Positions 1,969 to 29,387 of a DNA stretch of 35,760 nucleotides are shown here, piece after piece; within the stretch, counting starts at the first letter, position 1, and each line of letters begins with the position of its first letter. Position numbers and translations under genes: made by a program. The notes beneath the pieces were generated by a model that worked only from the letters and a program-made list of their open reading frames with translations, did not search any database and was not told the origin of the DNA. The stretch lies in contig SHWC01000016.1 in assembly GCA_009691045.1 (NCBI GenBank), positions 1 through 35,760 on the forward strand, in the 5' to 3' direction. Origin of the DNA: Alphaproteobacteria bacterium. Lineage in GTDB: Bacteria > Pseudomonadota > Alphaproteobacteria > UBA828.

Positions 1969-2643
1969 TTATTTCGGCTGCCAAAGGTCCTGACCGCCCG
2001 GATAGCAGAACGTGCCGGAGGGCGTGTAGAGGCCGGCGGTGAGTTTGAATGGGCTCGCCGGGCGTAGCGCATAGATCGAGTGCTTGGGATCGAGGAACTC
2101 CATCGAGATCACCTTCATGGGGTCCGCCGCCGGCAGCACATAGGGAAAGCGACCATCCAAAATCGTGTCGCCGATTTTGCTGAAATAGCGCAGCTGGCCA
2201 TGCGCCGGCAGAAGCTTTTTGCCCACCTGAACCGTGGTGCGAATGATCGGCTTACCTTTGTCAAATGTGGTCGCGACGATGCGCTTGCCGCGTTGCACAA
2301 GCGTGGTTTCACCCGGCGTCGCGGGCACGCCGCGTTCCTTGACGTAGTCGCGCATCTTGGCGCTGGAGTTCAGATAGTGCGTCCAGAAGCGGCCCTGAAC
2401 GACCTTGTCGGCGTTCAGCCCGTCAAGTTCAGGACCGGCATAAGTGAGCGAATAGGCGCCGAACCCTGAGGTGTACTCGGCTTTATCGACGACATATTGG
2501 TTGAGAAAAATCGCCTTGTTCTTGGCCGGCTTGAACGGCGCGGGCAGCAGGGCCGCCGCGGCCTTGGGATCGGCCGGCACATAACAAAGAATGAGCAGGC
2601 GCGCGCCGGTGACGAGTTGCGGTGGCAGAAGCTTGCTGGCCAT
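1969..2643 (-). CDS. Acetoacetate decarboxylase-like protein
   Basis: This soluble protein has 224 residues. The ATG at 2643 is preceded by a strong AAGGGGG ribosome-binding site, whereas the frame further upstream to 2799 has no family character, so this start is preferred. The N-terminal half (LLILCYVPADPKAAAALLPAPFKP, read in parts) matches the acetoacetate decarboxylase family pattern, in which a short strand is followed by 'LLP.P..P' and then a segment with NQY and FGAYSLTYAG. True acetoacetate decarboxylases form a Schiff base on a lysine. Several lysines are present in the middle of the protein (for example in SSAKMRDYVKERG), but I cannot place the catalytic one, so the activity is uncertain. 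It converges with the amidase at 509. A nested palindromic repeat lies upstream of it, between it and the carboxyltransferase gene. Confidence 0.6.
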   Translation of the reverse strand: MASKLLPPQLVTGARLLILCYVPADPKAAAALLPAPFKPAKNKAIFLNQYVVDKAEYTSGFGAYSLTYAGPELDGLNADKVVQGRFWTHYLNSSAKMRDYVKERGVPATPGETTLVQRGKRIVATTFDKGKPIIRTTVQVGKKLLPAHGQLRYFSKIGDTILDGRFPYVLPAADPMKVISMEFLDPKHSIYALRPASPFKLTAGLYTPSGTFCYPGGQDLWQPK

Positions 2644-2740
2644 GATGTCCCCCTTGTTTGTTGACTGCCGATATTGAGCGTGCCTTGCCGTCTCGGCAAC
2701 TAGATCAAACCGGCCGTCGCAATTAGAGGTACGCCTCCTT

Positions 2741-2824
2741 CCTTCGAGACGCCCTGTCGCCTCATCCTGAGGAGCGCGAAGCGCGTCTCGAAGGAGCAAG
2801 GCGACAGGGCTCCTCAGGATGAGG
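2741..2824. repeat. Interleaved palindromic intergenic repeat (class 2)
   Basis: Three inverted pairs occur in the order A-B-C-A'-B'-C'. A is 2741-2752 (CCTTCGAGACGC) with A' at 2783-2794. B is 2752-2761 (CCCTGTCGCC) with B' at 2800-2809. C is 2760-2775 (CCTCATCCTGAGGAGC) with C' at 2809-2824. A small CGC-GAA-GCG hairpin sits between C and A'. The parts resemble the CTCATCCTGAGGAGC...GTCTCGAAGGA repeats common between alphaproteobacterial genes. The arrangement is best explained as one repeat unit inserted into an oppositely oriented copy. It lies between two leftward genes. Confidence 0.8.
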
Positions 2825-2853
2825 TCTAGGGTAAGCGCTACAAAATTTACCCA

Positions 2854-3822
2854 TCAGCTCAAACTCTCTTCGCCGCACAGGCGATCTTGCGCGCGGCGCA
2901 AATCTTGCGCGGCTTCGACCTCAAGCGCGACAAAGCGCAAGCGATCGCCCGGCCGTGTTTGCGCCAGTTTCGCGAAGGCCGCCGAGATCACGGTATAGGG
3001 ATTGATGAAGCCACCAAGCGTCAGCGCGTCGTTCATCAAGATAATCGGCGTCTGCCCGCCGAGATTGATCGCGCCGATGGCATAACCATGATCGATGGTG
3101 TTGGAGGGCTCATTGCCGTTCTCAGGCGCCTTGTCATAGGCCTTGCGGGTAAACGTCCAGTCAGGTCCTTCAAGCCGAAAGCCGACGCGGTTGGAGCGCG
3201 CGGAGAGTCTCCATTCGGTCACGAAGAAGCGCGCCTGCCCGGCCTCATCGATCCAATCGTCATTCGGGCCGACCACGACCTCAATGGTCGCGCGTCCGCG
3301 CTCGATGACCGGTCGGCAAGCAGGTTTCACCGCGCGCCCTGCCCTTGCCTCGCCCGCCGGGCCAATCGGCAGACGATCGCCATTCTTTAGGGCACGGCCC
3401 TCGAACCCGCCAACATGAGCGAGCGTATAGGTCGCGCGCGAGCCCAAAAAGGGCGGCACATCGATCCCGCCGGCAATGGCGACATAGGTTCGTGCGCCAA
3501 GCGTAGCCGAACCGAGCGCGAGCACCTGCCCGGCGCGTACCGCGTGGCTCTGCCAGAGCGCGAGCGGCGTGCCGTCGAGCGTCGCACCCATATCGGCGCC
3601 GCACAGCGCAATGATCGCGTCTTGGGTGAAGCGCAGATGCGGCCCAATGAATTGGCATTCAAGACCCGCCGCGTTAAGCGAATTGCCGACCAAGAGATTC
3701 GCGAGCCGAAGCGACACGGAATCGAGCGCGCCGCAGGGCGGGAAGCCGACATTGTAATGACCCTTCCGCCCTGGCCAATCCTGCACGGTGGTTTCAAGAC
3801 CCGGTTTCAGGATTTCGATCAT
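2854..3822 (-). CDS. Biotin-dependent carboxyltransferase subunit, AHS2/PxpC/urea-carboxylase-like
   Basis: This 322-residue protein is of the allophanate hydrolase subunit 2 / 5-oxoprolinase subunit C family. The N-terminus reads ILKPGLETTVQDWPGRKGHYNVG, then PPCGALDSVSLRLANLLVGN and ALCGADM. The 'QDWPGR.G...VG.PP.G..D' version is typical of the carboxyltransferase part of urea carboxylase rather than of PxpC, which usually has QDLGR and SGAMD. Annotation pipelines would call it 5-oxoprolinase subunit C or KipA-like. The ATG at 3822 overlaps the stop of the upstream gene in ATGA, so the two subunits are translationally coupled and probably form a complex. A longer in-frame start at 3855 lies inside the upstream gene. 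No biotin carboxylase, biotin carrier or PxpA gene is in the window. Confidence 0.9.
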   Translation of the reverse strand: MIEILKPGLETTVQDWPGRKGHYNVGFPPCGALDSVSLRLANLLVGNSLNAAGLECQFIGPHLRFTQDAIIALCGADMGATLDGTPLALWQSHAVRAGQVLALGSATLGARTYVAIAGGIDVPPFLGSRATYTLAHVGGFEGRALKNGDRLPIGPAGEARAGRAVKPACRPVIERGRATIEVVVGPNDDWIDEAGQARFFVTEWRLSARSNRVGFRLEGPDWTFTRKAYDKAPENGNEPSNTIDHGYAIGAINLGGQTPIILMNDALTLGGFINPYTVISAAFAKLAQTRPGDRLRFVALEVEAAQDLRRAQDRLCGEESLS

Positions 3823-4688
3823 GGCGGCGGTCCGCCGGTCAAGGTTTTGGTCCAAGCCAAATGCGCCGCGACCGAGAATTTTTGCGCCGCCGAAATCTCA
3901 TAGTCATAGCGGCCCTCATTGACCGCGGCCTCGATCGCCTCGAACTCGTCCTGCGCAATGGGACGGAATTTGACGCGATCACCCGACTTCAACAGCACGA
4001 TCTCTCCCTTGAACGCCCGATTGCGGCTCAAGGGGTCGAACACCAAAACCGGCGTGCGGCCGATCAATTGATAGCCGCCGGGCGAACGCAGGGTGTAGAT
4101 CGAGCTTGAGACACCGCCGAGCCCGAGCGCGCCCTGCGGCGTCCAGGTGCGCGGCGGGTTGTATTTCGGCGCCGTGATCGTGCAGCGCGGGTCGAGCGGG
4201 CGCAGCACGGGCAGGCCCGGGAATGAACCGACCGTGACCGCCCAATGCTCGCCCGCGCTATGGACGCGCGCCAAATGCGCGCGATCCTTCAGCCCATTGA
4301 TCTCGGCCACGTAATCGGGGTCATAGGGACGGTCGGTGATCTTGCGCCGATAATCCTCGATGCATTCCTTGGTCCAGGGATCGGCATACATCAAGGGCAG
4401 CACCAGAACACGGCTATCGACCACGATCGCGTCCAAGGGCCCGATGCCCTCGAGCAGCGATTTTAGCTCGCGTCTCAAATCGGCACAGGAAATCTCATCC
4501 GCCTCATATTCGACCAAGAGCGTGTTGTAGCAGGTGACGCTATCGATGATCCCGGGCGTGCCGCTCGCCTTCAACGCGGCATCGAGCGCGAGCGCCATGA
4601 TGTTGAGCGCGAGCGAGGCATCATCGCCAAATTGCACGAGCAAATAGCGATCACCGGACGGCGAAAAACGTGGCGAGGGAAAGATCAA
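3819..4688 (-). CDS. Biotin-dependent carboxyltransferase subunit, AHS1/PxpB/urea-carboxylase-like
   Basis: This 289-residue protein is of the allophanate hydrolase subunit 1 / 5-oxoprolinase subunit B family and is the partner of the downstream AHS2 gene. Recognisable parts are YNTLLVEYE, GSFPGLPVLRPLDPR, PRTWTPQGALGLGG and SPGGYQLIGRTP, which form the cyclophilin-like core. A C-terminal extension (GDRVKFRPIAQDEFEAI) makes it longer than KipI/PxpB (about 230-240 residues) and resembles the corresponding part of urea carboxylase. The only possible start in this frame is a TTG at 4688, because a stop lies eight codons upstream at 4710-4712; no strong ribosome-binding site precedes it. The stop overlaps the next gene's ATG. 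If the pair is active it needs biotin carboxylase and carrier subunits from elsewhere. The family call is secure; the substrate is open. Confidence 0.9.
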   Translation of the reverse strand: MIFPSPRFSPSGDRYLLVQFGDDASLALNIMALALDAALKASGTPGIIDSVTCYNTLLVEYEADEISCADLRRELKSLLEGIGPLDAIVVDSRVLVLPLMYADPWTKECIEDYRRKITDRPYDPDYVAEINGLKDRAHLARVHSAGEHWAVTVGSFPGLPVLRPLDPRCTITAPKYNPPRTWTPQGALGLGGVSSSIYTLRSPGGYQLIGRTPVLVFDPLSRNRAFKGEIVLLKSGDRVKFRPIAQDEFEAIEAAVNEGRYDYEISAAQKFSVAAHLAWTKTLTGGPPP

Positions 4689-4717
4689 AAAATCACCGAA
4701 GACTCGCTCTCACTTAT

Positions 4718-4818
4718 CGTCATGCCCGGGCTTGACCCGGGCATCCAGACGTAAAGAAACACTGGATTGCCGGAGCTTGCCCCCGACCCCGATCGGGGGT
4801 CGATGCCCGGCAATGACG
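4718..4818. repeat. Two-hairpin palindromic repeat (class 1, copy 1)
   Basis: The left hairpin at 4722-4744 has arms ATGCCCGGG and CCCGGGCAT around a CTTGA loop. The element ends in GCCCGGCAATGACG (to 4818), which is inverted relative to its CGTCATGCCCGGG start. The middle holds a second GC-rich palindrome (CCCCGATCGGGG). It is the same element type as those at 11417 and 22229. It lies between two leftward genes, the glyoxalase-like gene (3' side) and the carboxyltransferase pair, and may end transcription from 5352. Confidence 0.85.
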
Positions 4819-4845
4819 TTAAGTGTGTAAGGCTCATACGTCCAT

Positions 4846-5352
4846 TTACGGCTTATGCGGGTCGGTGAAATTGGCCCAGGTCTGGGTATAATTGTGCGAG
4901 CTGATCTCAACGATATTGCCCCACGGGTCCTCGCAATAGCAGACCTTGTAAGGCTTGTCCGGCCACAGATTCCAAACCTTGCTACGCTGCTTGCCGCCGC
5001 TTTTCGCGATCGATTTGGCCAGCTGTTCAATGTTCGGGTCAGTCACGCAAATATGGAAAACGCCCGTGCGGGCATAGTCGAAATTCGGCTTCCGGCGTGT
5101 CGTCTTGGGCCGGTAGAACTGGAACAGCTCGATGCCGATGCCCTCGGCCGTGCCCAGATGCGCCATGCGCATGCGCTTGAAGCCCTTGCCAAAAATATCG
5201 GCGATGATGTTCGAGAAGTGGCTGCCGTCCTCATAGGCGTCGATCGGCGGCATGATCACGTGGCAACCCAGGATTTTTTTGTACCAGGCGGTGGCCTTTT
5301 CGATGTCGGTCACCGTGATGCCGACGTGATTGAATGCCCTCAAATAGGTCAT
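4846..5352 (-). CDS. VOC (glyoxalase/bleomycin resistance/dioxygenase fold) family protein
   Basis: This 168-residue protein is a single vicinal-oxygen-chelate unit of two beta-alpha-beta-beta-beta modules. Module 1 starts FNHVGITVTDIEKATAWYKKILG; module 2 starts GVFHICVTDPNIEQL and ends CYCEDPWGNIVEIS. The expected metal ligands are visible: His9, Glu75 (IELFQF), His100 and Glu149, so a divalent-metal enzyme is likely. The start at 5352 has a GGGGAG ribosome-binding site in good position. Family members include glyoxalase I, methylmalonyl-CoA epimerase, dioxygenases and resistance proteins, and the sequence does not decide between them. It is divergent from the dehydrogenase/lyase operon at 5452, with about 100 bases for shared promoters, so joint regulation is possible. 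Confidence 0.88.
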   Translation of the reverse strand: MTYLRAFNHVGITVTDIEKATAWYKKILGCHVIMPPIDAYEDGSHFSNIIADIFGKGFKRMRMAHLGTAEGIGIELFQFYRPKTTRRKPNFDYARTGVFHICVTDPNIEQLAKSIAKSGGKQRSKVWNLWPDKPYKVCYCEDPWGNIVEISSHNYTQTWANFTDPHKP

Positions 5353-7418: not shown

Positions 7419-8441
7419 CTAATAAAATCGATCGAAGTGAATCTGCCCGACCGGCACTTTGCGGCCGAGCACGAGCATTTTCTGCATGGCATCGCCCATG
7501 GCGGGCGGGCCCGAGAAGTAGATTTCCATGTCCTTGAGCGCATCGCCGAAAGTTTCTTCGACCACCGCGTGAATAAAGCCGGTGCGCCCCGCATAACGCT
7601 CGCGCGCGGCGGCCTCGAAATCCGACACCGCGGCGGTGTGATGAATCCGCGTGCCATAGCCCGGAAGGTCTTTGATCTCGGCCTCGGCGCACAGATCGCC
7701 CGGCGTACGCCCACCATAAAAGAGATGGATGTTCCGCGCGGCGAAACGCGGATCGCGCGCGGTGGCGTGCACGATCGAGAGCATGGGCGATAGGCCCGAA
7801 CCACCGGCCACGCATAAAATATCGCGCTCGGAGGGGCGCAAATAGGCGAGGCCATAAGGCCCATCGATATCAAAGCGTGTGCCTTCGACCGGGCCGAACA
7901 ACGCGCCGCTCCCCTTGCCGCCCGGCACGTGCCGGATCACAAAGCGCCATTCGCCATCGCTGCTCGGCAGGCCCGACATGGAATAGGCGCGCGGGCCGAT
8001 CTCGGGGCCGAAATCGATCAGCATGTATTGACCGGGCACGAACTCCGCCGCGCCATCGGTGCGAAAGACGAATTCGCGCAAATCGCGCGTCAATTCGCGT
8101 GAACCGACAAGGAGCGCCGATTGCCGACGCGGCACGACCGGCGGCACGGTCTCGGGCGATAGACGTGTCTTGATGGCGCAAGGTCCGAGCGGGCGGCTTT
8201 GACAGGCGAGCCGGCGCCCGCGCGCCCGGTCGCGCTCGGTCAAGCCCGGCGCGGCCTGCCACACCGTCTCGACCTCTCCGCTGATCAGCTCGATCTTGCA
8301 GGTGCCGCAAGACCCGACGCTGCATTCATAGGGGAGGCCGAGCCCCGCACGCAGCCCCGCGCGCAAAATGGTGTCGCCGACCGCGCAATCGAACCCGATG
8401 TCGCTGCCCGCAAGACTAATTCTTACGCCTGCATCACTCAT
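7419..8441 (-). CDS. 2Fe-2S ferredoxin / FAD / NAD(P)H oxidoreductase (oxygenase reductase type)
   Basis: This 340-residue electron-transfer flavoprotein has three domains. A plant-type 2Fe-2S ferredoxin domain (residues 1-90) carries Cys40, Cys45, Cys48 and Cys80 (ECSVGSCGTC and LACQS). An FAD-binding barrel carries RAYSMSG (151-157). A NAD(P)-binding domain carries GGSGLSPM (213-220) and FSGPPAMGDAM near the C-terminus. Reductases with this order (phenol hydroxylase DmpP, toluene/xylene and benzoate types) pass electrons from NAD(P)H to an oxygenase. No oxygenase is in the window. The start at 8441 overlaps the stop of the CoA-transferase gene as ATGA, so it is translated with it. Its partner enzyme cannot be named. 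Confidence 0.93.
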   Translation of the reverse strand: MSDAGVRISLAGSDIGFDCAVGDTILRAGLRAGLGLPYECSVGSCGTCKIELISGEVETVWQAAPGLTERDRARGRRLACQSRPLGPCAIKTRLSPETVPPVVPRRQSALLVGSRELTRDLREFVFRTDGAAEFVPGQYMLIDFGPEIGPRAYSMSGLPSSDGEWRFVIRHVPGGKGSGALFGPVEGTRFDIDGPYGLAYLRPSERDILCVAGGSGLSPMLSIVHATARDPRFAARNIHLFYGGRTPGDLCAEAEIKDLPGYGTRIHHTAAVSDFEAAARERYAGRTGFIHAVVEETFGDALKDMEIYFSGPPAMGDAMQKMLVLGRKVPVGQIHFDRFY

Positions 8442-23116: not shown

Positions 23117-23405
23117 AGATTCGTCTGAAAGTACTGAAATAGCTTAGCTCCTCTGGACCGGCGACGCTTTTTGTCATCGGTGAATGCTGGATGGCTAGCC
23201 GAGGGCACCGCCTTGCCCCTCCCCATAAAGGATTCGAGGGCCTCTGGCCAGAGCGTGATCCGGCCGTCAAAAGCCTCTGTGGCGCTGCACAAATTCCTGC
23301 CCAACCGAGCACCGGCTTGATAATCTCCGCGCCTTCTGGCGCACCGGCGCGGCTTGGCAGGCGGGGCAATCGCCCACGCACAGTCCCGCATAGCGGAGTA
23401 TGACA
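23117..23405. other. Unassigned divergent intergenic region
   Basis: About 290 bases lie between the phosphatase start and the aldehyde dehydrogenase. Minus-strand open frames of 113 and 118 codons cross it, but neither shows a recognisable family. The first ends in a stop overlapping the phosphatase TTG (TTGA), as a coupled gene would. A 12-bp palindrome CTCTGGCCAGAG lies at 23242-23253. The GGAG at 23395-23398 is the ribosome-binding site of the rightward gene. I see no promoter or riboswitch I can name. Confidence 0.4.
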
Positions 23406-24845
23406 ATGTACGAAGGCCTTGGTCTCTATATCGATGGTAAGTGGCGTCCCTCACATTCGGGCCGCACGTTCAAGATTCTCAATCCGGCCAATGAAGAAGT
23501 GCTCGGCGAATTGCCGATCGCGGACGCGCGCGACCTCGACGACGCTCTGGCCGCGGCCAAGAAGGGTCTCGAAGTTTGGCGCAAGACGACAGCGTGGGAA
23601 CGCTCGAAGGTGATGCGCAAGATCGCCGAAATTCTGCGCGAGCGGAATGAATCGATCGCCAAGACGCTGACGCTCGAATCCGGTAAGCCGATCACCGAAT
23701 CACGGCTCGAAGTTGGCGCCGCGGCCGACCAGTTCGATTGGTTCGCCGATGAAGCACGCCGCGTCTATGGCCAGACCATCGAGAGCCGCATCCCGAACGT
23801 GCGCAATTTTCTGCGCTATGAGCCGGTAGGCGTGGTGGCGGCCTTCACCGCGTGGAACTTCCCGGTCGTTTTGGTCGCGCGCAAGATCGCGCCCGCGCTC
23901 GCCGCCGGTTGTTCGATCATCGTCAAGCCGGCAGAGGATGATCCTGCCTCCGGTCTCGCCATCGTGCAGGCCTGCCATGATGCGGGCGTACCGCCGGGTG
24001 TGGTCAATGCGGTGGTCGGCGACCCGCCCTTCATCTCGACCCATTTGCTCGCCTCGCCGATCACGCGGAAGGTCACGCTCACGGGTTCGATCCCGGTCGG
24101 CAAGCAACTCTTGAAGCTCGCCGCCGACACGGTGAAGCGCGCCTCGATGGAGCTGGGCGGCCACGCCCCCTTTATCGTGTTCGAAGATGCCGATCTCGCC
24201 CACGCGGTCGAAGTTGGCGTCAAGACCAAGTTCCGCAATAACGGTCAGGTCTGCGTCTCGCCGACCCGCTTCTTCATCCATGAGAGCAAGGCTGAAGATT
24301 TCACCGCGCGGTTCGTCGCGGGCGTCAAGAAAATCAAGATCGGCAATGGCCTCGACGCCGGTGTCGATGTCGGCCCGCTGATCAACAAGAAGCGGCTCGA
24401 TTGGATCAACGACCTGGTCGAGGATTCACGCCGCAGCGGCGCCAAGATCGAAACCGGCGGCAAGCGGCCGGCGGGCTTCAATAGCGGCTATTATTATGAG
24501 CCGACGGTGATCACCGGTTTGAAGGACGATCACAAGATCATGACCACCGAGCCGTTCGGTCCGGTGGCCCTGATCACCACCTTCAAGGATTTCGGCGAGG
24601 TGATGCAGCGCGCCAATCAACTGCCCTTTGGCCTGGCGTCCTATTGCTTCACCAGATCGCTCAAGACCGCGAACGAAGCCTATGAGCAATTGGAGACCGG
24701 CATGGTGGGCGTCAATCACACCGCCATCGCAACAACGGAGTTGCCCTTTGGCGGCATGAAGGAAAGCGGTCTCGGCCGCGAAGGCGGCTCACTTGGCATC
24801 CACGATTATCTCGAGGCCAAATACGCCTCCATGTTGATGAATTAA
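23406..24845 (+). CDS. Succinate-semialdehyde-type aldehyde dehydrogenase (NAD(P)+)
   Basis: This 479-residue aldehyde dehydrogenase has catalytic residues Asn151 (AWNFP), Lys174 (IVKPAE), Glu249 (MELGGHAPF) and Cys283 (NNGQVCVSPTR). The NNGQVC(V/T) and ELGGHAPF forms are those of succinate-semialdehyde dehydrogenases (GabD/YneI group) and related semialdehyde enzymes, which pass the aldehyde to succinate or a similar dicarboxylate. Two start codons lie six bases apart (23400 and 23406). The GGAG at 23395-23398 is properly spaced only for 23406, so that is chosen. It is followed by a strong stem-loop and then by two amidases and an aminotransferase on the same strand, which could feed it a semialdehyde (inference). 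It is only distantly similar to the other aldehyde dehydrogenase in the window. Confidence 0.93.
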   Translation: MYEGLGLYIDGKWRPSHSGRTFKILNPANEEVLGELPIADARDLDDALAAAKKGLEVWRKTTAWERSKVMRKIAEILRERNESIAKTLTLESGKPITESRLEVGAAADQFDWFADEARRVYGQTIESRIPNVRNFLRYEPVGVVAAFTAWNFPVVLVARKIAPALAAGCSIIVKPAEDDPASGLAIVQACHDAGVPPGVVNAVVGDPPFISTHLLASPITRKVTLTGSIPVGKQLLKLAADTVKRASMELGGHAPFIVFEDADLAHAVEVGVKTKFRNNGQVCVSPTRFFIHESKAEDFTARFVAGVKKIKIGNGLDAGVDVGPLINKKRLDWINDLVEDSRRSGAKIETGGKRPAGFNSGYYYEPTVITGLKDDHKIMTTEPFGPVALITTFKDFGEVMQRANQLPFGLASYCFTRSLKTANEAYEQLETGMVGVNHTAIATTELPFGGMKESGLGREGGSLGIHDYLEAKYASMLMN

Positions 24846-24867
24846 GCCGAACGGCGAAATCCGCACG

Positions 24868-24902
24868 ACGGACGGCGGTGCCAGATCGGTGTCGCCGTCC
24901 GT
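24868..24902 (+). terminator. Stem-loop terminator after the semialdehyde dehydrogenase
   Basis: A perfect 10-bp stem ACGGACGGCG / CGCCGTCCGT encloses a 15-base loop 23 bases after the stop. The following bases (ATTGCTTC) are not a strong T run, so termination may be partial, allowing some read-through into the amidase genes. Confidence 0.6.
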
Positions 24903-24937
24903 ATTGCTTCAACTAAGGCCGGCCTGAAAATATTGGT

Positions 24938-24966
24938 TTGCCGGCCGACGCCGCTAAGCTTGAATA
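24938..24966 (+). promoter_or_regulatory. Putative promoter of the first tandem amidase
   Basis: TTGCCG (24938-24943) and TTGAAT (24960-24965) are separated by 16 bases. The pattern TTTGCCGGC...CGCCGCT..GCTT.AAT recurs upstream of the second amidase (TTGCCG at 26485-26490, TTAAAT at 26508-26513). Its preservation in both paralogues suggests a functional promoter. The match to the sigma-70 consensus is only modest. Confidence 0.4.
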
Positions 24967-24998
24967 GTGATGTCCAATAATTTGGGGGGACACCGACC

Positions 24999-26408
24999 AT
25001 GGCGGCCAGTGACTTTGCCTATATGGGCCTGCTTGAGCTCGGCACGGCGTTCAAATCACGCAAGCTCTCGCCGGTCGAGATCACGCGCACGCTGCTCGAT
25101 CGGGTCGGCTTGGTTGACCGTACGCTCCTGAGCTATGCGACGGTGATGGCCGAAAGCGCCATGGCCGAGGCCAAAAAGGCGCAGGACGAAATCAGCCGCA
25201 GCCAGTATCGCGGGCCGCTCCATGGCGTGCCAATCGCGGTCAAGGATTTGTGCGATGCCGAGGGCGTGGTCACCGCCGCCGGCATGCCGCGCCTCTATGG
25301 CGATCATGTCGCGACCAAGGATTCGACCGTGGTGGCGCGCCTGCGCGCCGCTGGCGCCGTGATCCTTGGCAAGCTCCAGCTCACCGAAGGCGCGGTCGCG
25401 CATCATCACCCCGACGTCAAACCGCCGGTCAACCCGCACAACCCCGATTATTGGAGCGGCGCCTCATCGAGCGGCTCGGGCGTCGCGAGCGCGGCTGGTC
25501 TTTGTTATGGCTCGCTCGGGTCGGACACCGGCGGCTCCATCCGCTTTCCTTGCTTTGCCAATGGCGTCACCGGCATCAAGCCGACCTGGGGCCGCGTCAG
25601 CCGCGCCGGCGTTTTCCCACTGGCGCCCTCGCTCGACCATATCGGGCCGATGGCGCGCAGCGCCGGCGATTGCGGCGCGATCTTGAACGCGATCGCAGGC
25701 CTCGATCCCGATGACCCGACCACCTTGCGCGCACCGCCGCCGGATTGTTTGAACGGCATCGGCCTCGGCGCGCGCGGCATACGCATCGGCTTCGATGAGG
25801 CCTATGCGACGACCCGCGTCGATCCGTTGGTCGTCAAAGCGATCCGCGACGCGCTCGATGTCTTCAAAGCGGCCGGCGCCGATATCAAGCCGATCAAATT
25901 CCCGGCGACTGAGGCGGTTATCGCGGCGTGGTTTCCGATCTGCACGGCAGAGGCGGCCACTTCGCACGAAGCCAATTACCCCGCGCGCGAAGCCGATTTC
26001 GGCCCGGGTCTGAAAGGCTTGATCGATACCGGCCGTGCCACGACCGGCCAGGACTACGCCAAGTCCCACAAAATTCGTCAGATCTTCCGTGGTCAGCTCG
26101 ATGCGGTGTTCGAGACCGTCGATGCCGTGATCGCGCCGTCGTTGATGCGTCAGAACCTTACCAACGCCGAGTTCGATCAATTTGGCAGCGTCGAAAGCGA
26201 TTGGCCCGACCTCGTGCGCTTCACCTCGGTCTCCGATATGGCCGGCAACCCGACCATCTCGCTCCCGGCCGGCTTCAATCCCGATGGCGCGCCGATCGGC
26301 TTTCAATTGCTCGCGCGCAATCTGAACGAAAACCTGTTGGTGCGCCTGGGCGATGCCTATCAGCACGGCACATCGTGGCACAAACAACGGCCGAAACTCG
26401 CGCCCTAG
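24999..26408 (+). CDS. Amidase-signature amidase, tandem copy 1
   Basis: This 469-residue AS-family amidase has Lys82 (AVKDLC), cis-Ser156 in a variant SGASSSGSG motif (usually SGGSSGGSG), and nucleophile Ser180 in SDTGGSIRFP, so the triad is complete. An AHHHPD segment follows the LTEGA strand in both copies and replaces the usual asparagine-rich stretch, a subfamily mark. The ATG at 24999 is preceded by a GGGGGGA ribosome-binding site. It is the same length as the next gene and aligns with it without gaps. The substrate is unknown. Neighbouring semialdehyde dehydrogenase and aminotransferase point to amides of omega-amino acids (inference). It has no GatC-like partner, unlike the amidase at 11577. 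Confidence 0.94.
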   Translation: MAASDFAYMGLLELGTAFKSRKLSPVEITRTLLDRVGLVDRTLLSYATVMAESAMAEAKKAQDEISRSQYRGPLHGVPIAVKDLCDAEGVVTAAGMPRLYGDHVATKDSTVVARLRAAGAVILGKLQLTEGAVAHHHPDVKPPVNPHNPDYWSGASSSGSGVASAAGLCYGSLGSDTGGSIRFPCFANGVTGIKPTWGRVSRAGVFPLAPSLDHIGPMARSAGDCGAILNAIAGLDPDDPTTLRAPPPDCLNGIGLGARGIRIGFDEAYATTRVDPLVVKAIRDALDVFKAAGADIKPIKFPATEAVIAAWFPICTAEAATSHEANYPAREADFGPGLKGLIDTGRATTGQDYAKSHKIRQIFRGQLDAVFETVDAVIAPSLMRQNLTNAEFDQFGSVESDWPDLVRFTSVSDMAGNPTISLPAGFNPDGAPIGFQLLARNLNENLLVRLGDAYQHGTSWHKQRPKLAP

Positions 26409-26484
26409 ACCGGCTCTTCTTTATCAGCAAGAGGCTTGCCTGATTTAACTTGGGCGGAATAGGCGCTAAGTCCGCACTTTGAGT

Positions 26485-26513
26485 TTGCCGGCTCGCCGCC
26501 GCTGCGCTTAAAT
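26485..26513 (+). promoter_or_regulatory. Putative promoter of the second tandem amidase
   Basis: TTGCCG (26485-26490) and TTAAAT (26508-26513) have a 17-base spacer, and the block aligns with the element upstream of the first amidase with a one-base length difference. It suggests that the duplication included the upstream region and that each amidase has its own transcription start. No experimental promoter is known. Confidence 0.4.
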
Positions 26514-26551
26514 GGCCACAAGCCACTAAGACAAAACGGGAGACGACGGTC

Positions 26552-27961
26552 ATGGCCAATAGCGATCTAGCCTATATGGGGCTCCTTGAGCTCGGCGCGG
26601 CGATCAAGGCGCGCAAGGTGTCGTCGGTCGAGGCGACGCGTACGATGTTCGATCGCATCGCGGCGTTCGACGCGAAGCTTTACAGTTACTGCGCCCTGAT
26701 GCGCGAGACCGCCGAGGCCGAAGCGAAGCAGGCCGATGCCGAGATCGGCAAAGGCCAGCACAAGGGCCCACTGCATGGCGTGCCGGTCGCGGTCAAAGAT
26801 TTATGCGATGCCAAGGGCGTGGTCACCGCCGCCGGCATGCCGCGCATCAAGAACAAGAACGTCGCGACCAAGGATTCGACGGTCGTCACCAAATTCCGGG
26901 CCGCGGGCGCGGTGATCCTGGGCAAGCTCCAGCTCACCGAGGGCGCGGTCGCGCACCATCATCCCGACATCAAGGTGCCGGTGAATCCGCACAATGCGAA
27001 ATTTTGGAGCGGGGCCTCATCGAGCGGTTCGGGCGTCGCGACCGCCGCCGGCCTTTGTTATGGCTCGCTCGGCTCCGACACGGGCGGCTCGATCCGCCTC
27101 CCCTGCTTCGCCAATGGCGTCACCGGGATCAAGGGTAGTTGGGGGCGGGTCAGCAAGGCGGGCGTCGCGGCGCTTTCGTGGTCGCTCGACCATGTTGGCC
27201 CGATGGCGCGGAGCGCCGCCGATTGTGGCGCAATTCTGGGCACCATCGCGGGCGTCGATCCGGCGGACCCGACCGCGCTCCGCGTGCCGGTGCCGGATTA
27301 TTTGGCCGGGCTCGGTCAAGACCTCAAGGGCGTGCGCATCGGCTTCGATGAGGCCTATGCGACCAAGCATGTGATCCCGGCCATTACCAAATCGATGGTT
27401 CAGGCGGTTGAAGTGCTGCGCGCGGCAGGCGCCGAAATCAAGCCGATCAAATTTCCGTCGACCGATGAGGTGCTCGAGGCGTGGTTCTCGATCTGCCCGC
27501 CCGAATGCGCCGCCGCGCATGAGGCGACCTTCCCCGCGCGCGCGGCCGATTACGGCCCGGGCCTGAAAGAAATGGCAGAGAACGGCCATAAGACGAGCGG
27601 CATCGCCTACGCCAAAGCACACAATGTGCGCATGATCTTCCGTGGCCAATATGACGCGGTGTTCGACGATGTCGATGTCGTCGTGGCGCCCTCGGGCATG
27701 AGCTATACGCTGTCGGTCAAAGAGTTTGACGTGTTCGGCTCAAAAGACACCGATTGGCCCGACCTGATCCGCTTCACCGCTCCGTTCGACATGGCGGGCA
27801 CGCCCACCCTATCGTTGCCGGCGGGCTTCGATTCGGAAGGCGTGCCCTTCGGCTTCCAGCTCCTTGGGCGCCATTTGGGCGAGACACCGTTGGTGCGCGT
27901 GGGCGATGCCTATCAGCGCGCGACCGACCATCACAAACGGCGGCCCCAATTGGCGCCTTGA
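26552..27961 (+). CDS. Amidase-signature amidase, tandem copy 2
   Basis: This 469-residue amidase is paralogous to the preceding gene, with the same length and residue numbering: Lys82, cis-Ser156 and nucleophile Ser180 in SDTGGSIRLP. The first 50 residues show 30 identities by my count; the core is closer. The copies differ around residue 100 (RLYGDH versus RIKNKN) and in the helical segment near 300-340, where substrate contacts usually lie, so the pair may have split specificities. The ATG at 26552 has a GGGAGACGACGG site (GGGAG). The aminotransferase begins 19 bases after its stop, which suggests one transcript. Confidence 0.94.
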   Translation: MANSDLAYMGLLELGAAIKARKVSSVEATRTMFDRIAAFDAKLYSYCALMRETAEAEAKQADAEIGKGQHKGPLHGVPVAVKDLCDAKGVVTAAGMPRIKNKNVATKDSTVVTKFRAAGAVILGKLQLTEGAVAHHHPDIKVPVNPHNAKFWSGASSSGSGVATAAGLCYGSLGSDTGGSIRLPCFANGVTGIKGSWGRVSKAGVAALSWSLDHVGPMARSAADCGAILGTIAGVDPADPTALRVPVPDYLAGLGQDLKGVRIGFDEAYATKHVIPAITKSMVQAVEVLRAAGAEIKPIKFPSTDEVLEAWFSICPPECAAAHEATFPARAADYGPGLKEMAENGHKTSGIAYAKAHNVRMIFRGQYDAVFDDVDVVVAPSGMSYTLSVKEFDVFGSKDTDWPDLIRFTAPFDMAGTPTLSLPAGFDSEGVPFGFQLLGRHLGETPLVRVGDAYQRATDHHKRRPQLAP

Positions 27962-27980
27962 AGGCAGGACCGAACCTCCC

Positions 27981-29387
27981 ATGACCGAGAGGCGCGATTG
28001 GTCCCAGCTCGAGCGCTGGGATCGCAGCTATTATCTGCACAGCACGCAGGCCGCGGCCGAACACGTGTTCACCGCGGTCGATTCAATGGATGGCAATTAC
28101 TTCACGCTGTCCGACGGCACGCGGCTCCTCGATTTTCAGAGCCAGCTGATTTCCGACAGCATGGGTCACCGCCATCCGGCGATCCATGGCGAATTGACGC
28201 GCGCCATGGAGCGCTATGGCCATGTGTTGTTCGGCATGGCGAATGAGTATCGCGCGCGGGCCGCTAAACTGATCGTGGAAGACGTGCTCGGGCCCAATTC
28301 CTGGGCCGGGCGCGTGCGGATTTTTGCCTCAGGCACGGACGCGGTCGAATGCGCGACCAACATGGCGCGGCTCTACACCCGCCGCACCGTGATTTTGACT
28401 CAAGCGCATTCCTTCCATGGCATGACCATGGGCTCGACCATGATGCGCGGCTATCGCAATAACCTAACACCGCAGGGCGATCTATCGGCCGTGCAAGACG
28501 TGCCGGGCTTTCCGCCGCATGGCTATATCCCGATCCCGCCGCCCGAGCCGGAAGATTATCAGGCAAGCGGCACGCTGCCGTCGATCATCGCGACCGAGCA
28601 AATCCTGCGCGCGATTGGGCCCGAGAATATCGCGGGTGTGATCACCGAGCCCATGCTCGGCGGCGGTGGCACTTTCCCTCACAAGGATTACATGCCGGCG
28701 CTGGTTGCGCTCGCGCGCAAATATGGGATTCTGTGGATCGACGATGAAGTGATCACCGGCTTTGGCCGGCTCGGCGAATGGTTTGGCTATCAGCATTGGT
28801 CGGGCCTCGCGCCCGATCTTCTGGCCGGCGGCAAGGGCGTCAATTCTTGCGCGCTACCGGTCGGCGTGGTGATCGCCAATAAAGCGATCTCGGATCATTT
28901 CGAGCGCGCGCGCTGGTGGAGTGGCTCAACCTGGGACGGTCACCCGCTGGTCTGCGCCACCATCGTCGGTAATCTCGAATACATGCTGGCCAACAACATT
29001 ATCCAGCAGGTGCGCCAACGCGGCGCCTATCTCAAGGAACGGCTCGATGGCTTGAAGCCGAAACACCCCTCGATCGGCCGAATCTCCGGTCGCGGCCTGT
29101 TTCAGGTGATTGACCTGATCAATGGCGAGGGCAAACCGATCGTGCCGGAAGACCGCTTCAGCGCGTTCACCGGCGATCTCGGCGAACACCCGAACGTGAT
29201 CGTCTATAAGGAAATGGCGAACCGCGGGGTCTTCATGGGCGGCTTCACGCCGAACACCTTGAAGCTCGGCCCGCCCTTCACCGTGACGCAAGACGATATC
29301 GACCTCGCGATCGATGCGTTGGACGCCGCGCTCGACGTGATCGATGCCAAATTCGGCAAGACGGGCGCCAGGCCACGATCCAATTAG
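27981..29387 (+). CDS. Class III pyridoxal-phosphate aminotransferase
   Basis: This 468-residue fold type I, class III aminotransferase has a phosphate-binding segment FASGTDAVECA (115-125), HSFHGMTMG (143-151, aromatic-His-Gly), IDDEVITGFGR with Asp255 for the pyridine nitrogen, and the PLP lysine Lys285 in AGGKGVNSC. Members use omega-amino acids such as GABA, beta-alanine or ornithine, or amines such as taurine. The frame is open from 27864, but the ATG at 27981 starts the family sequence 19 bases after the amidase stop. The family is secure. Placement with the semialdehyde dehydrogenase and amidases supports an omega-amino acid or amine donor; that is inference. Confidence 0.94.
   Translation: MTERRDWSQLERWDRSYYLHSTQAAAEHVFTAVDSMDGNYFTLSDGTRLLDFQSQLISDSMGHRHPAIHGELTRAMERYGHVLFGMANEYRARAAKLIVEDVLGPNSWAGRVRIFASGTDAVECATNMARLYTRRTVILTQAHSFHGMTMGSTMMRGYRNNLTPQGDLSAVQDVPGFPPHGYIPIPPPEPEDYQASGTLPSIIATEQILRAIGPENIAGVITEPMLGGGGTFPHKDYMPALVALARKYGILWIDDEVITGFGRLGEWFGYQHWSGLAPDLLAGGKGVNSCALPVGVVIANKAISDHFERARWWSGSTWDGHPLVCATIVGNLEYMLANNIIQQVRQRGAYLKERLDGLKPKHPSIGRISGRGLFQVIDLINGEGKPIVPEDRFSAFTGDLGEHPNVIVYKEMANRGVFMGGFTPNTLKLGPPFTVTQDDIDLAIDALDAALDVIDAKFGKTGARPRSN

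What the first reader, a model, noticed from the sequence alone, without database searches (positions are those of the whole stretch)
2854..4688. Urea-carboxylase-like carboxyltransferase halves without biotin carboxylase or carrier
Both coupled proteins have features closer to the carboxyltransferase part of urea carboxylase (QDWPGR...PP.G..D; GDRVKFRPI tail) than to PxpB/PxpC. No biotin carboxylase, BCCP or PxpA is present. Pipelines would label them 5-oxoprolinase subunits, which may be wrong. The nearby AS amidases, the family of allophanate hydrolase, make a carboxylate-then-hydrolyse route for an amide or urea-like compound worth testing.
Basis: partly seen in the sequence, partly recalled or inferred. 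Interest (0 to 1): 0.5.

Follow-up and report, generated by a model that had tools for sequence, protein, structure and literature searches.

The report
Orphan urea-carboxylase-type transferase gene pair
Two adjacent bacterial genes encode the carboxyl-transferring half of a urea-carboxylase-like enzyme without its biotin-charging half; relatives suggest the missing half is encoded elsewhere in the genome and may be shared by several such transferase pairs.

Summary
Observation confirmed: two translationally coupled minus-strand genes, AHS1/CT_C_D (3819-4688) and AHS2/CT_A_B (2854-3822), are closest to the carboxyltransferase (CT) of urea carboxylase (UC), not to PxpB/PxpC. They are nevertheless neither UC nor PxpBC (both groupings rejected). 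They belong to a large clade of split CT pairs that includes a clade mostly found in PxpA-BC-AHS1-AHS2-BCCP clusters. The UC general-base lysine is kept.

The lack of biotin carboxylase (BC), carrier (BCCP) and PxpA beside the pair, and of PxpA in this assembly, is uninformative: the MAG is 67% complete, and two same-genus genomes (100% and 98% complete) carry the whole cluster. In the family, 17 of 20 relatives have an AHS1 next to a BC (one each, two in one genome), yet 2-8 AHS1 matches each. In one genus the cluster is itself split between loci. Best reading: an orphan CT module charged in trans by a shared BC/BCCP. The substrate is unknown.

The window's AS amidases are not allophanate hydrolases; PxpA is a better candidate hydrolase. 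The locus is syntenic in one congener; in another the pair is cleanly absent while its neighbours remain. Novelty: new variant of a known kind.

The parts
3819..4688 (-). AHS1 / CT subdomains C-D (UC-type carboxyltransferase small half)
   Evidence: Pfam PF02682 150.8 bits; TIGR02712 175 vs PxpB 78 bits; AlphaFold model pLDDT 92, best match K. lactis UC 3va7 Z 28.5
4164..4166 (-). codon of Lys175 (KYNPPRT), aligned with UC general base Lys1605
   Evidence: Lys1605 role from PMC5770610 passages; position by counting in the alignment; K in 53/53 BC-linked rows (three of them UC), R in 3/3 PxpBC
2854..3822 (-). AHS2 / CT subdomains A-B (UC-type carboxyltransferase large half), ATGA-overlapped with AHS1
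   Evidence: PF02626 304 bits; overlap; keeps 49/49 signature columns of BC-linked CTs
1969..2649 (-). ADC-like protein (weak acetoacetate-decarboxylase-family match), adjacent downstream
   Evidence: PF06314 below cut-off; adjacent in G002; found in 6 of 385 class genomes; homologue in a Pseudonocardia PxpA/BC cluster
4846..5352 (-). glyoxalase-family protein upstream on the same strand
   Evidence: PF00903; TIGR03645 below cut-off; kept with the AHS pair in G002 and without it in G001
7419..8441 (-). Fer2-FAD-NAD reductase (BenC/MmoC-like, a common family); homologues lie near PxpA-BC genes together with a di-iron hydroxylase in two loci
   Evidence: 44% identity to L228 and L257 proteins; L228/L257 hydroxylases
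2732..2824 (.). palindromic intergenic repeat between AHS2 and the ADC-like gene
   Evidence: inverted repeats I1-I3; the 16-nt arm occurs nowhere else in the window

Best explanation
The pair is a stand-alone, UC-type biotin-dependent carboxyltransferase (CT). AHS2 (domains A/B) and AHS1 (C/D) form the CT active site with Lys175 as general base (inferred from homology). It takes CO2 from carboxybiotin on a carrier protein encoded elsewhere, most likely the BCCP+BC of the PxpA-BC-AHS1-AHS2-BCCP cluster found in congeners, and puts it on a small N-H or C-H acid other than urea. A second enzyme (PxpA in the parent cluster) would then hydrolyse the activated product. Shown: family, clade, conserved residues, split and multi-copy genomics in relatives. 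Inferred: trans charging, carboxylation chemistry, hydrolysis step. Unknown: substrate.
For: Tree of 54 pairs: the window pair falls in clade I (96/98), inside a 100/100 clade with the mostly BC-linked clade II; AU test rejects joining it to PxpBC (p=1.7e-4) or to UC (p=8e-59). UC Lys1605 equivalent: K in 53/53 BC-linked rows (three of them UC) and 20/20 clade I pairs, R in 3/3 PxpBC. AHS2 keeps 49/49 and AHS1 24/27 signature columns. 17 of 20 family relatives have a BC-adjacent AHS1 (18 of 90 AHS1 matches; 2-8 matches per genome). Genus g5: AHS2 lies with BCCP on a different contig from BC-AHS1. Two CT pairs beside a single BC and/or BCCP in L216, L227 and L239. PDB 9YX5, by title, shows an AHS pair bound to a mycobacterial acyl-CoA carboxylase complex (paper not seen).
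Against: No cluster-type BC, small BCCP or PxpA was recovered in this genome (67% complete), so co-presence is shown only in relatives; 3 of 20 relatives (G013, G017, G018) show no BC-adjacent AHS1. Clade I AHS1 proteins have lost more BC-linked signature columns (mean 0.81 kept) than clade II (0.99) or even the LYRT clade (0.85). Lys/Arg is not a clean test of biotin use: the R-type M. smegmatis pair is the one bound to a carboxylase in 9YX5. The pair is missing from one congener that keeps the BC cluster. Nothing here tests catalysis.
Confidence: 0.5

Rival explanations
1. Biotin-independent, PxpBC-like ATP-dependent activator: the pair phosphorylates an amide or lactam oxygen and an unlinked hydrolase opens it.
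For: PxpBC is a homologous pair without biotin, assumed to phosphorylate 5-oxoproline (PMC13274462 passages). The window has no BC/BCCP; two clade I pairs sit next to PxpA without BC (L106, L107).
Against: Outside the PxpBC clade (100/100) and AU-rejected; Lys instead of Arg at the general-base site; the 100/100 clade that holds it also holds 20 BC-linked rows among 67 in the larger tree.
Confidence: 0.2
2. Genuine urea/guanidine carboxylation with an AS amidase as allophanate hydrolase.
For: UC is the closest solved structure; Asn at the UC Asn/Asp specificity site (the Asn/Asp rule is in PMC12186494 passages, the site's position is recalled).
Against: AU rejects grouping with UC (p=8e-59); the four amidases are far below the allophanate hydrolase cut-off; no UAAP genes among the 30 window ORFs scanned, whereas the two UC loci read have UAAP1/UAAP2.
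Confidence: 0.05
3. Transcarboxylase/decarboxylase module: the pair moves CO2 between BCCP and a keto acid, linked to the ADC-like decarboxylase beside it.
For: The ADC-like gene is adjacent and rare (6 of 385 class genomes) and lies in or near PxpA-BC-AHS genes in L228 and G022; a BKACE gene lies near several tandem pairs.
Against: G001 keeps ADC and glyoxalase without the pair; ADC is not on an AHS contig in G006 and G007; ADC family assignment is below the Pfam cut-off.
Confidence: 0.12
4. Non-catalytic or decaying duplicate (regulatory KipI/KipA-like, or on its way out).
For: Cleanly absent in G001; AHS1 has three departures from signature columns; family relatives carry varying numbers of copies.
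Against: dN/dS 0.19-0.28 against the congener; intact ATGA-coupled ORFs; catalytic Lys kept.
Confidence: 0.1

Closest known systems
Urea carboxylase CT domain (K. lactis UC/UA, PDB 3VA7, 5I8I; TIGR02712)
   Same: CT_A_B + CT_C_D domains, KYNPxRT motif with general-base Lys1605, C-terminal part of AHS1 (model aligned over residues 1-288 to 3va7, Z 28.5, 285 residues, rmsd 3.1)
   Different: split into two genes, not fused to BC/BCCP, AU-rejected as part of the UC clade
Split biotin-linked CT pairs in PxpA-BCCP-BC-AHS1-AHS2 clusters (no function established here); split UC-CT homologues were already noted as unstudied adjacent genes in 2011 (PMC3199775, section 8)
   Same: clade II members (e.g. 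G001/G002, Inquilinus, SAR11 genomes) share the window's 100/100 clade and catalytic Lys
   Different: window pair has no BC, BCCP or PxpA beside it and different neighbours (glyoxalase, ADC-like); the Ruegeria and haloarchaeal clusters belong to another clade
Prokaryotic 5-oxoprolinase PxpBC (E. coli YbgJK, 5DUD; KipI/KipA)
   Same: two-gene AHS1/AHS2 architecture and fold
   Different: Arg for the catalytic Lys, shorter AHS1, separate clade; pxpA adjacent in E. coli
Actinobacterial acyl-CoA carboxylases with one alpha (BC-BCCP) subunit and several beta (CT) subunits (recalled, no call)
   Same: proposed logic: one charged carrier serves several CTs
   Different: different CT family

Membership tests
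Urea carboxylase (TIGR02712) | BC, CT and BCCP in one protein or beside it | tested here: not met
   No BC/BCCP in 30 scanned window ORFs; model score 328/175 bits vs cut-off 1303.85
Urea carboxylase (TIGR02712) | groups with UC proteins in a tree (K. lactis UC plus two annotated bacterial UCs) | tested here: not met
   AU p=8e-59 against window+UC
UC-type carboxyltransferase superfamily (CT_A_B/CT_C_D) | both domains present, paired | tested here: met
UC-type carboxyltransferase superfamily (CT_A_B/CT_C_D) | conserved general-base lysine (KlUA Lys1605) | tested here: met
   Lys175; 53/53 BC-linked rows have K
5-oxoprolinase PxpBC | scores above PxpB/PxpC model cut-offs | tested here: not met
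   PxpB 77.6 of 145.55; PxpC 213.6 of 500 bits
5-oxoprolinase PxpBC | clusters with PxpBC | tested here: not met
   AU p=1.7e-4, three PxpBC pairs only
5-oxoprolinase PxpBC | pxpA in the genome | tested here: inconclusive
   0 matches in this 67% complete genome; 20 of 20 family relatives have PxpA-family matches
Biotin-dependent carboxylase | carboxyl transfer from biotin | not testable with these tools
   needs biochemistry
Allophanate hydrolase (neighbouring amidases) | TIGR02713 cut-off 511 bits | tested here: not met
   149-206 bits for four amidases

The most novel reading that the evidence does not exclude
This alphaproteobacterial family runs a combinatorial biotin carboxylase: one BC/BCCP charges several interchangeable UC-type CT pairs, each tuned to a different amide, lactam or N-heterocycle-derived substrate, whose carboxylated (activated) form is then hydrolysed by PxpA-type enzymes. 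That would be a carboxylation-activated hydrolysis route parallel to ATP-phosphorylation lactamases.
Probability: 0.3. Interest if true: 0.7.

Novelty: new variant of a known kind. Interest (0 to 1): 0.45.

Why it matters
Genes of this type are named '5-oxoprolinase subunit', 'allophanate hydrolase subunit' or 'carboxyltransferase domain protein' in the records seen. If they are CT modules charged in trans, such names mislead, and a widespread cluster (seen here in Alphaproteobacteria including SAR11 genomes, Actinobacteria, Firmicutes, Thermomicrobia and haloarchaea) carries out an unassigned biotin-dependent reaction. The presence/absence of the pair between two congeners, and the g5 genus that encodes what looks like one holoenzyme at two loci, make the trans model directly testable.

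Tried and rejected
Rejected: PxpBC membership and UC membership; AS amidase as allophanate hydrolase; genome-wide absence of BC/PxpA as a biological fact (against 33, 34, 70); GDRVKFRPI as a UC-specific motif. The UC Asn/Asp site (N1330; number recalled) does not separate biotin-linked from PxpBC pairs: 23 of 53 BC-linked rows have Gln, like the three PxpC.

Led nowhere or partial: ADC-like gene as obligate partner (on a contig with AHS in G000, G002 and G022 but not in G001, G006 or G007); the two plasmid hits for ADC (Nostoc, Natronorubrum), of which the Nostoc locus read shows no annotated AHS gene. Literature: in the listings of searches I saw no functional study of the BC-linked PxpA cluster or of CT pairs used in trans; the library holds open-licence papers only. 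One paper notes the SAR11 genes in passing (PMC10308929 passages); one reports the M. smegmatis pair up under nitrogen limitation (PMC4617892 passages). The paper behind PDB 9YX5 was not found; only its title was seen.

Rows dropped: the tree/residue set was cut from 145 to 132 pairs (near-identical rows removed, SAR11 kept to four); 17 loci that I took for duplicates of contigs already held under G handles were skipped; AHS domains under 60% model coverage or 150 aa were dropped, and pairs under 200/220 aa. Five pairs used an upstream AHS2. The BC-AHS1 genes of genus g5 lack an adjacent AHS2 and so are not in the paired tree. Three PxpBC rows only; four further PxpB-like chains were read by eye. 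AHS1 counts include fragments at contig ends. The 'BC-linked' tag means a BC within 4.5 kb and was set by hand for K. lactis UC. An earlier count gave 9 of 39 genomes outside the family; the recount is 8 of 39. One search used only part of the BC list; one search repeats it with all 78 BC places of the 20 relatives and gives the same result.

Full report
What is there. The window is the whole contig G000:C33 of a 1.81 Mb assembly, 67% complete. On the minus strand lie AHS1 (CT_C_D, 3819-4688) and AHS2 (CT_A_B; ORF to 3855, but the ATG at 3822 overlaps the AHS1 stop as ATGA, so 2854-3822). A glyoxalase-family gene lies 157 nt upstream (4846-5352) and an ADC-like gene about 200 nt downstream (1969-2649); further neighbours are HIBADH-like, CitE-like, a Fer2-FAD-NAD reductase, a CoA-transferase, a class II aldolase and AS amidases.

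UC-like, not PxpBC. Urea carboxylase is the best NCBIfam model for both proteins; the PxpB and PxpC cut-offs are missed by a wide margin. K. lactis UC/UA leads the sequence comparison for both and the fold comparison for AHS1. The AHS1 model (pLDDT 92) aligns over its full length to UC (Z 28.5, 285 residues, rmsd 3.1) and over 199 residues to YbgJ (Z 18.9, rmsd 2.3). Lys1605 of K. lactis UA is described as the likely general base (PMC5770610, passages). Its equivalent in the window is Lys175 of KYNPPRT (position counted). Across 132 pairs this site is K in 53/53 BC-linked rows (three of them UC proteins) and 20/20 clade I pairs, R in 3/3 PxpBC pairs, and L in 15/18 of a separate clade that includes the C7 copy of this genome. 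In one search, B. subtilis KipI, PH0987, TTHA0988 and the M. smegmatis protein also show R there (read by eye).

Neither UC itself. A FastTree of 132 AHS1+AHS2 pairs and an IQ-TREE of 54 agree on the grouping. The window pair and its congener orthologue fall in clade I (20 rows: 0 with BC, 2 with PxpA within 4.5 kb). Clade I shares a well-supported clade (100/100) with clade II (23 rows: 18 with BC, 20 with PxpA) and clade III (24 rows: 2 with BC, Shinella and Rubellimicrobium) (tags, counts). AU tests reject joining the window pair to PxpBC (p=1.7e-4) or to UC (p=8e-59). That UC-CT halves occur as adjacent unstudied genes was already noted in 2011 (PMC3199775, section 8).

The missing half. 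This assembly shows no PxpA and one BC match, in a 664-aa ORF with a biotinyl domain. But 20 of 20 family relatives have PxpA-family matches. In 17 of 20, including the same-genus G001 (100% complete) and G002 (98%), a BC lies next to an AHS1; G013, G017 and G018 show none. G001 and G002 show PxpA-BC-AHS1-AHS2-BCCP. The absence here is therefore most simply incompleteness.

Many transferases, few chargers. All 20 family relatives have 2-8 AHS1 matches (90 in all, end fragments included), against 8 of 39 genomes outside the family. Of the 90, 18 are BC-adjacent. In genus g5 the parent cluster is split. BC-AHS1 has no AHS2 nearby in the five loci examined by tblastn, two of them with only 2.1-2.3 kb of downstream sequence. 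AHS2 followed by BCCP lies on another contig, or on a contig with no BC-AHS1, in 7 of 8 g5 genomes. Both halves were seen in G006 (BC side at a contig edge), G009, G011, G015 and G020. Elsewhere, two CT pairs accompany a single BC and/or BCCP in L216, L227 (BCCP only) and L239; L228 has two AHS1 genes, one of them cut, and one BC; L177 has two AHS1 and one AHS2. Tandem AHS1-AHS2-AHS1-AHS2 units occur in this genome (C2) and in several relatives; in 8 of 8 tandems with both members in the tree, one member is clade III and the other clade I. PDB 9YX5 is titled as a mycobacterial long-chain acyl-CoA carboxylase complex with MSMEG_0435-0436 bound: an AHS pair on another enzyme's carboxylase, though of the Arg type. 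These facts make trans charging plausible; none proves it for the window pair.

The locus. Gene order from the class II aldolase to the amidase is identical in G002, with dN/dS 0.28 (AHS1) and 0.19 (AHS2). In G001 the flanking genes are present at about 77-93% identity, but the AHS pair is absent: the glyoxalase and ADC-like genes are 87 bp apart, against 2,196 bp in the window (sequence). G001 also has only a clade III pair at the locus where this genome has the tandem, and none of its four AHS1 matches is clade I. With G002 carrying the pair, loss in G001 is simpler than two insertions; this is inference, and assembly error is not excluded. A palindromic repeat lies in the AHS2-ADC gap.

Substrate hints. 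The ADC-like family is rare (6 of 385 class genomes, five of them in this family). In the one genome outside the family, G022, it lies on the same contig as PxpA, BCCP, BC and AHS genes, with a di-iron hydroxylase and a reductase 44% identical to the window's. In Pseudonocardia endophytica L228 it lies with a di-iron hydroxylase, Rieske ferredoxin, reductase, PxpA, BCCP, BC and AHS1. The reductase is a common family, so its share of this link may be chance, and ADC is not on an AHS contig in G001, G006 or G007. In Ruegeria the BC-linked cluster lies near GABA transaminase and succinate-semialdehyde dehydrogenase genes. A hydroxylated N-heterocycle or lactam is therefore my guess for the parent system. 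A carboxylated-lactim intermediate has been considered for the unrelated caprolactamase (PMC8453981, passages). The window's own substrate remains unknown.

Verdict. The pair is an orphan UC-type CT, probably served by a biotin carboxylase encoded elsewhere.

Noticed in passing
G000:C7 (L008:9692-11543) and 17 related pairs: A separate clade of AHS pairs in this family where the UC general-base lysine is Leu in 15 of 18 (LYRTPR); none has BC and 5 of 18 have PxpA within 4.5 kb. Possibly a new activity.
   Followed up: partly
G000:C2 (L006:5487-9531) and relatives: Tandem AHS1-AHS2-AHS1-AHS2 of two different paralogue clades; in L006 and L081 a fused E1 dehydrogenase lies on the other strand, and BKACE is nearby in several loci.
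   Followed up: partly
L097, L100, L101, L102, L152 versus L260, L261, L262: Genus g5 encodes BC-AHS1 and AHS2-BCCP at separate loci.
   Followed up: partly
L257 plus L156 (G022:C119) and L228 (Pseudonocardia): Gene neighbourhood of di-iron hydroxylase, reductase, ADC-like protein, PxpA, BCCP, BC and AHS; no pathway assigned here.
   Followed up: partly
L256 (G001:C67) against window 2650-4845: Clean presence/absence of the AHS pair between two congeners with flanking genes kept.
   Followed up: yes
window 23400-29387: Aldehyde dehydrogenase, two adjacent AS amidases and a class III aminotransferase on one strand: possibly an amide/amine catabolic island.
   Followed up: no
window 4689-4845: By eye, the gap upstream of AHS1 holds a second palindrome-like GC-rich repeat (sequence); the inverted-repeat search of 2600-4900 did not list it.
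   Followed up: no
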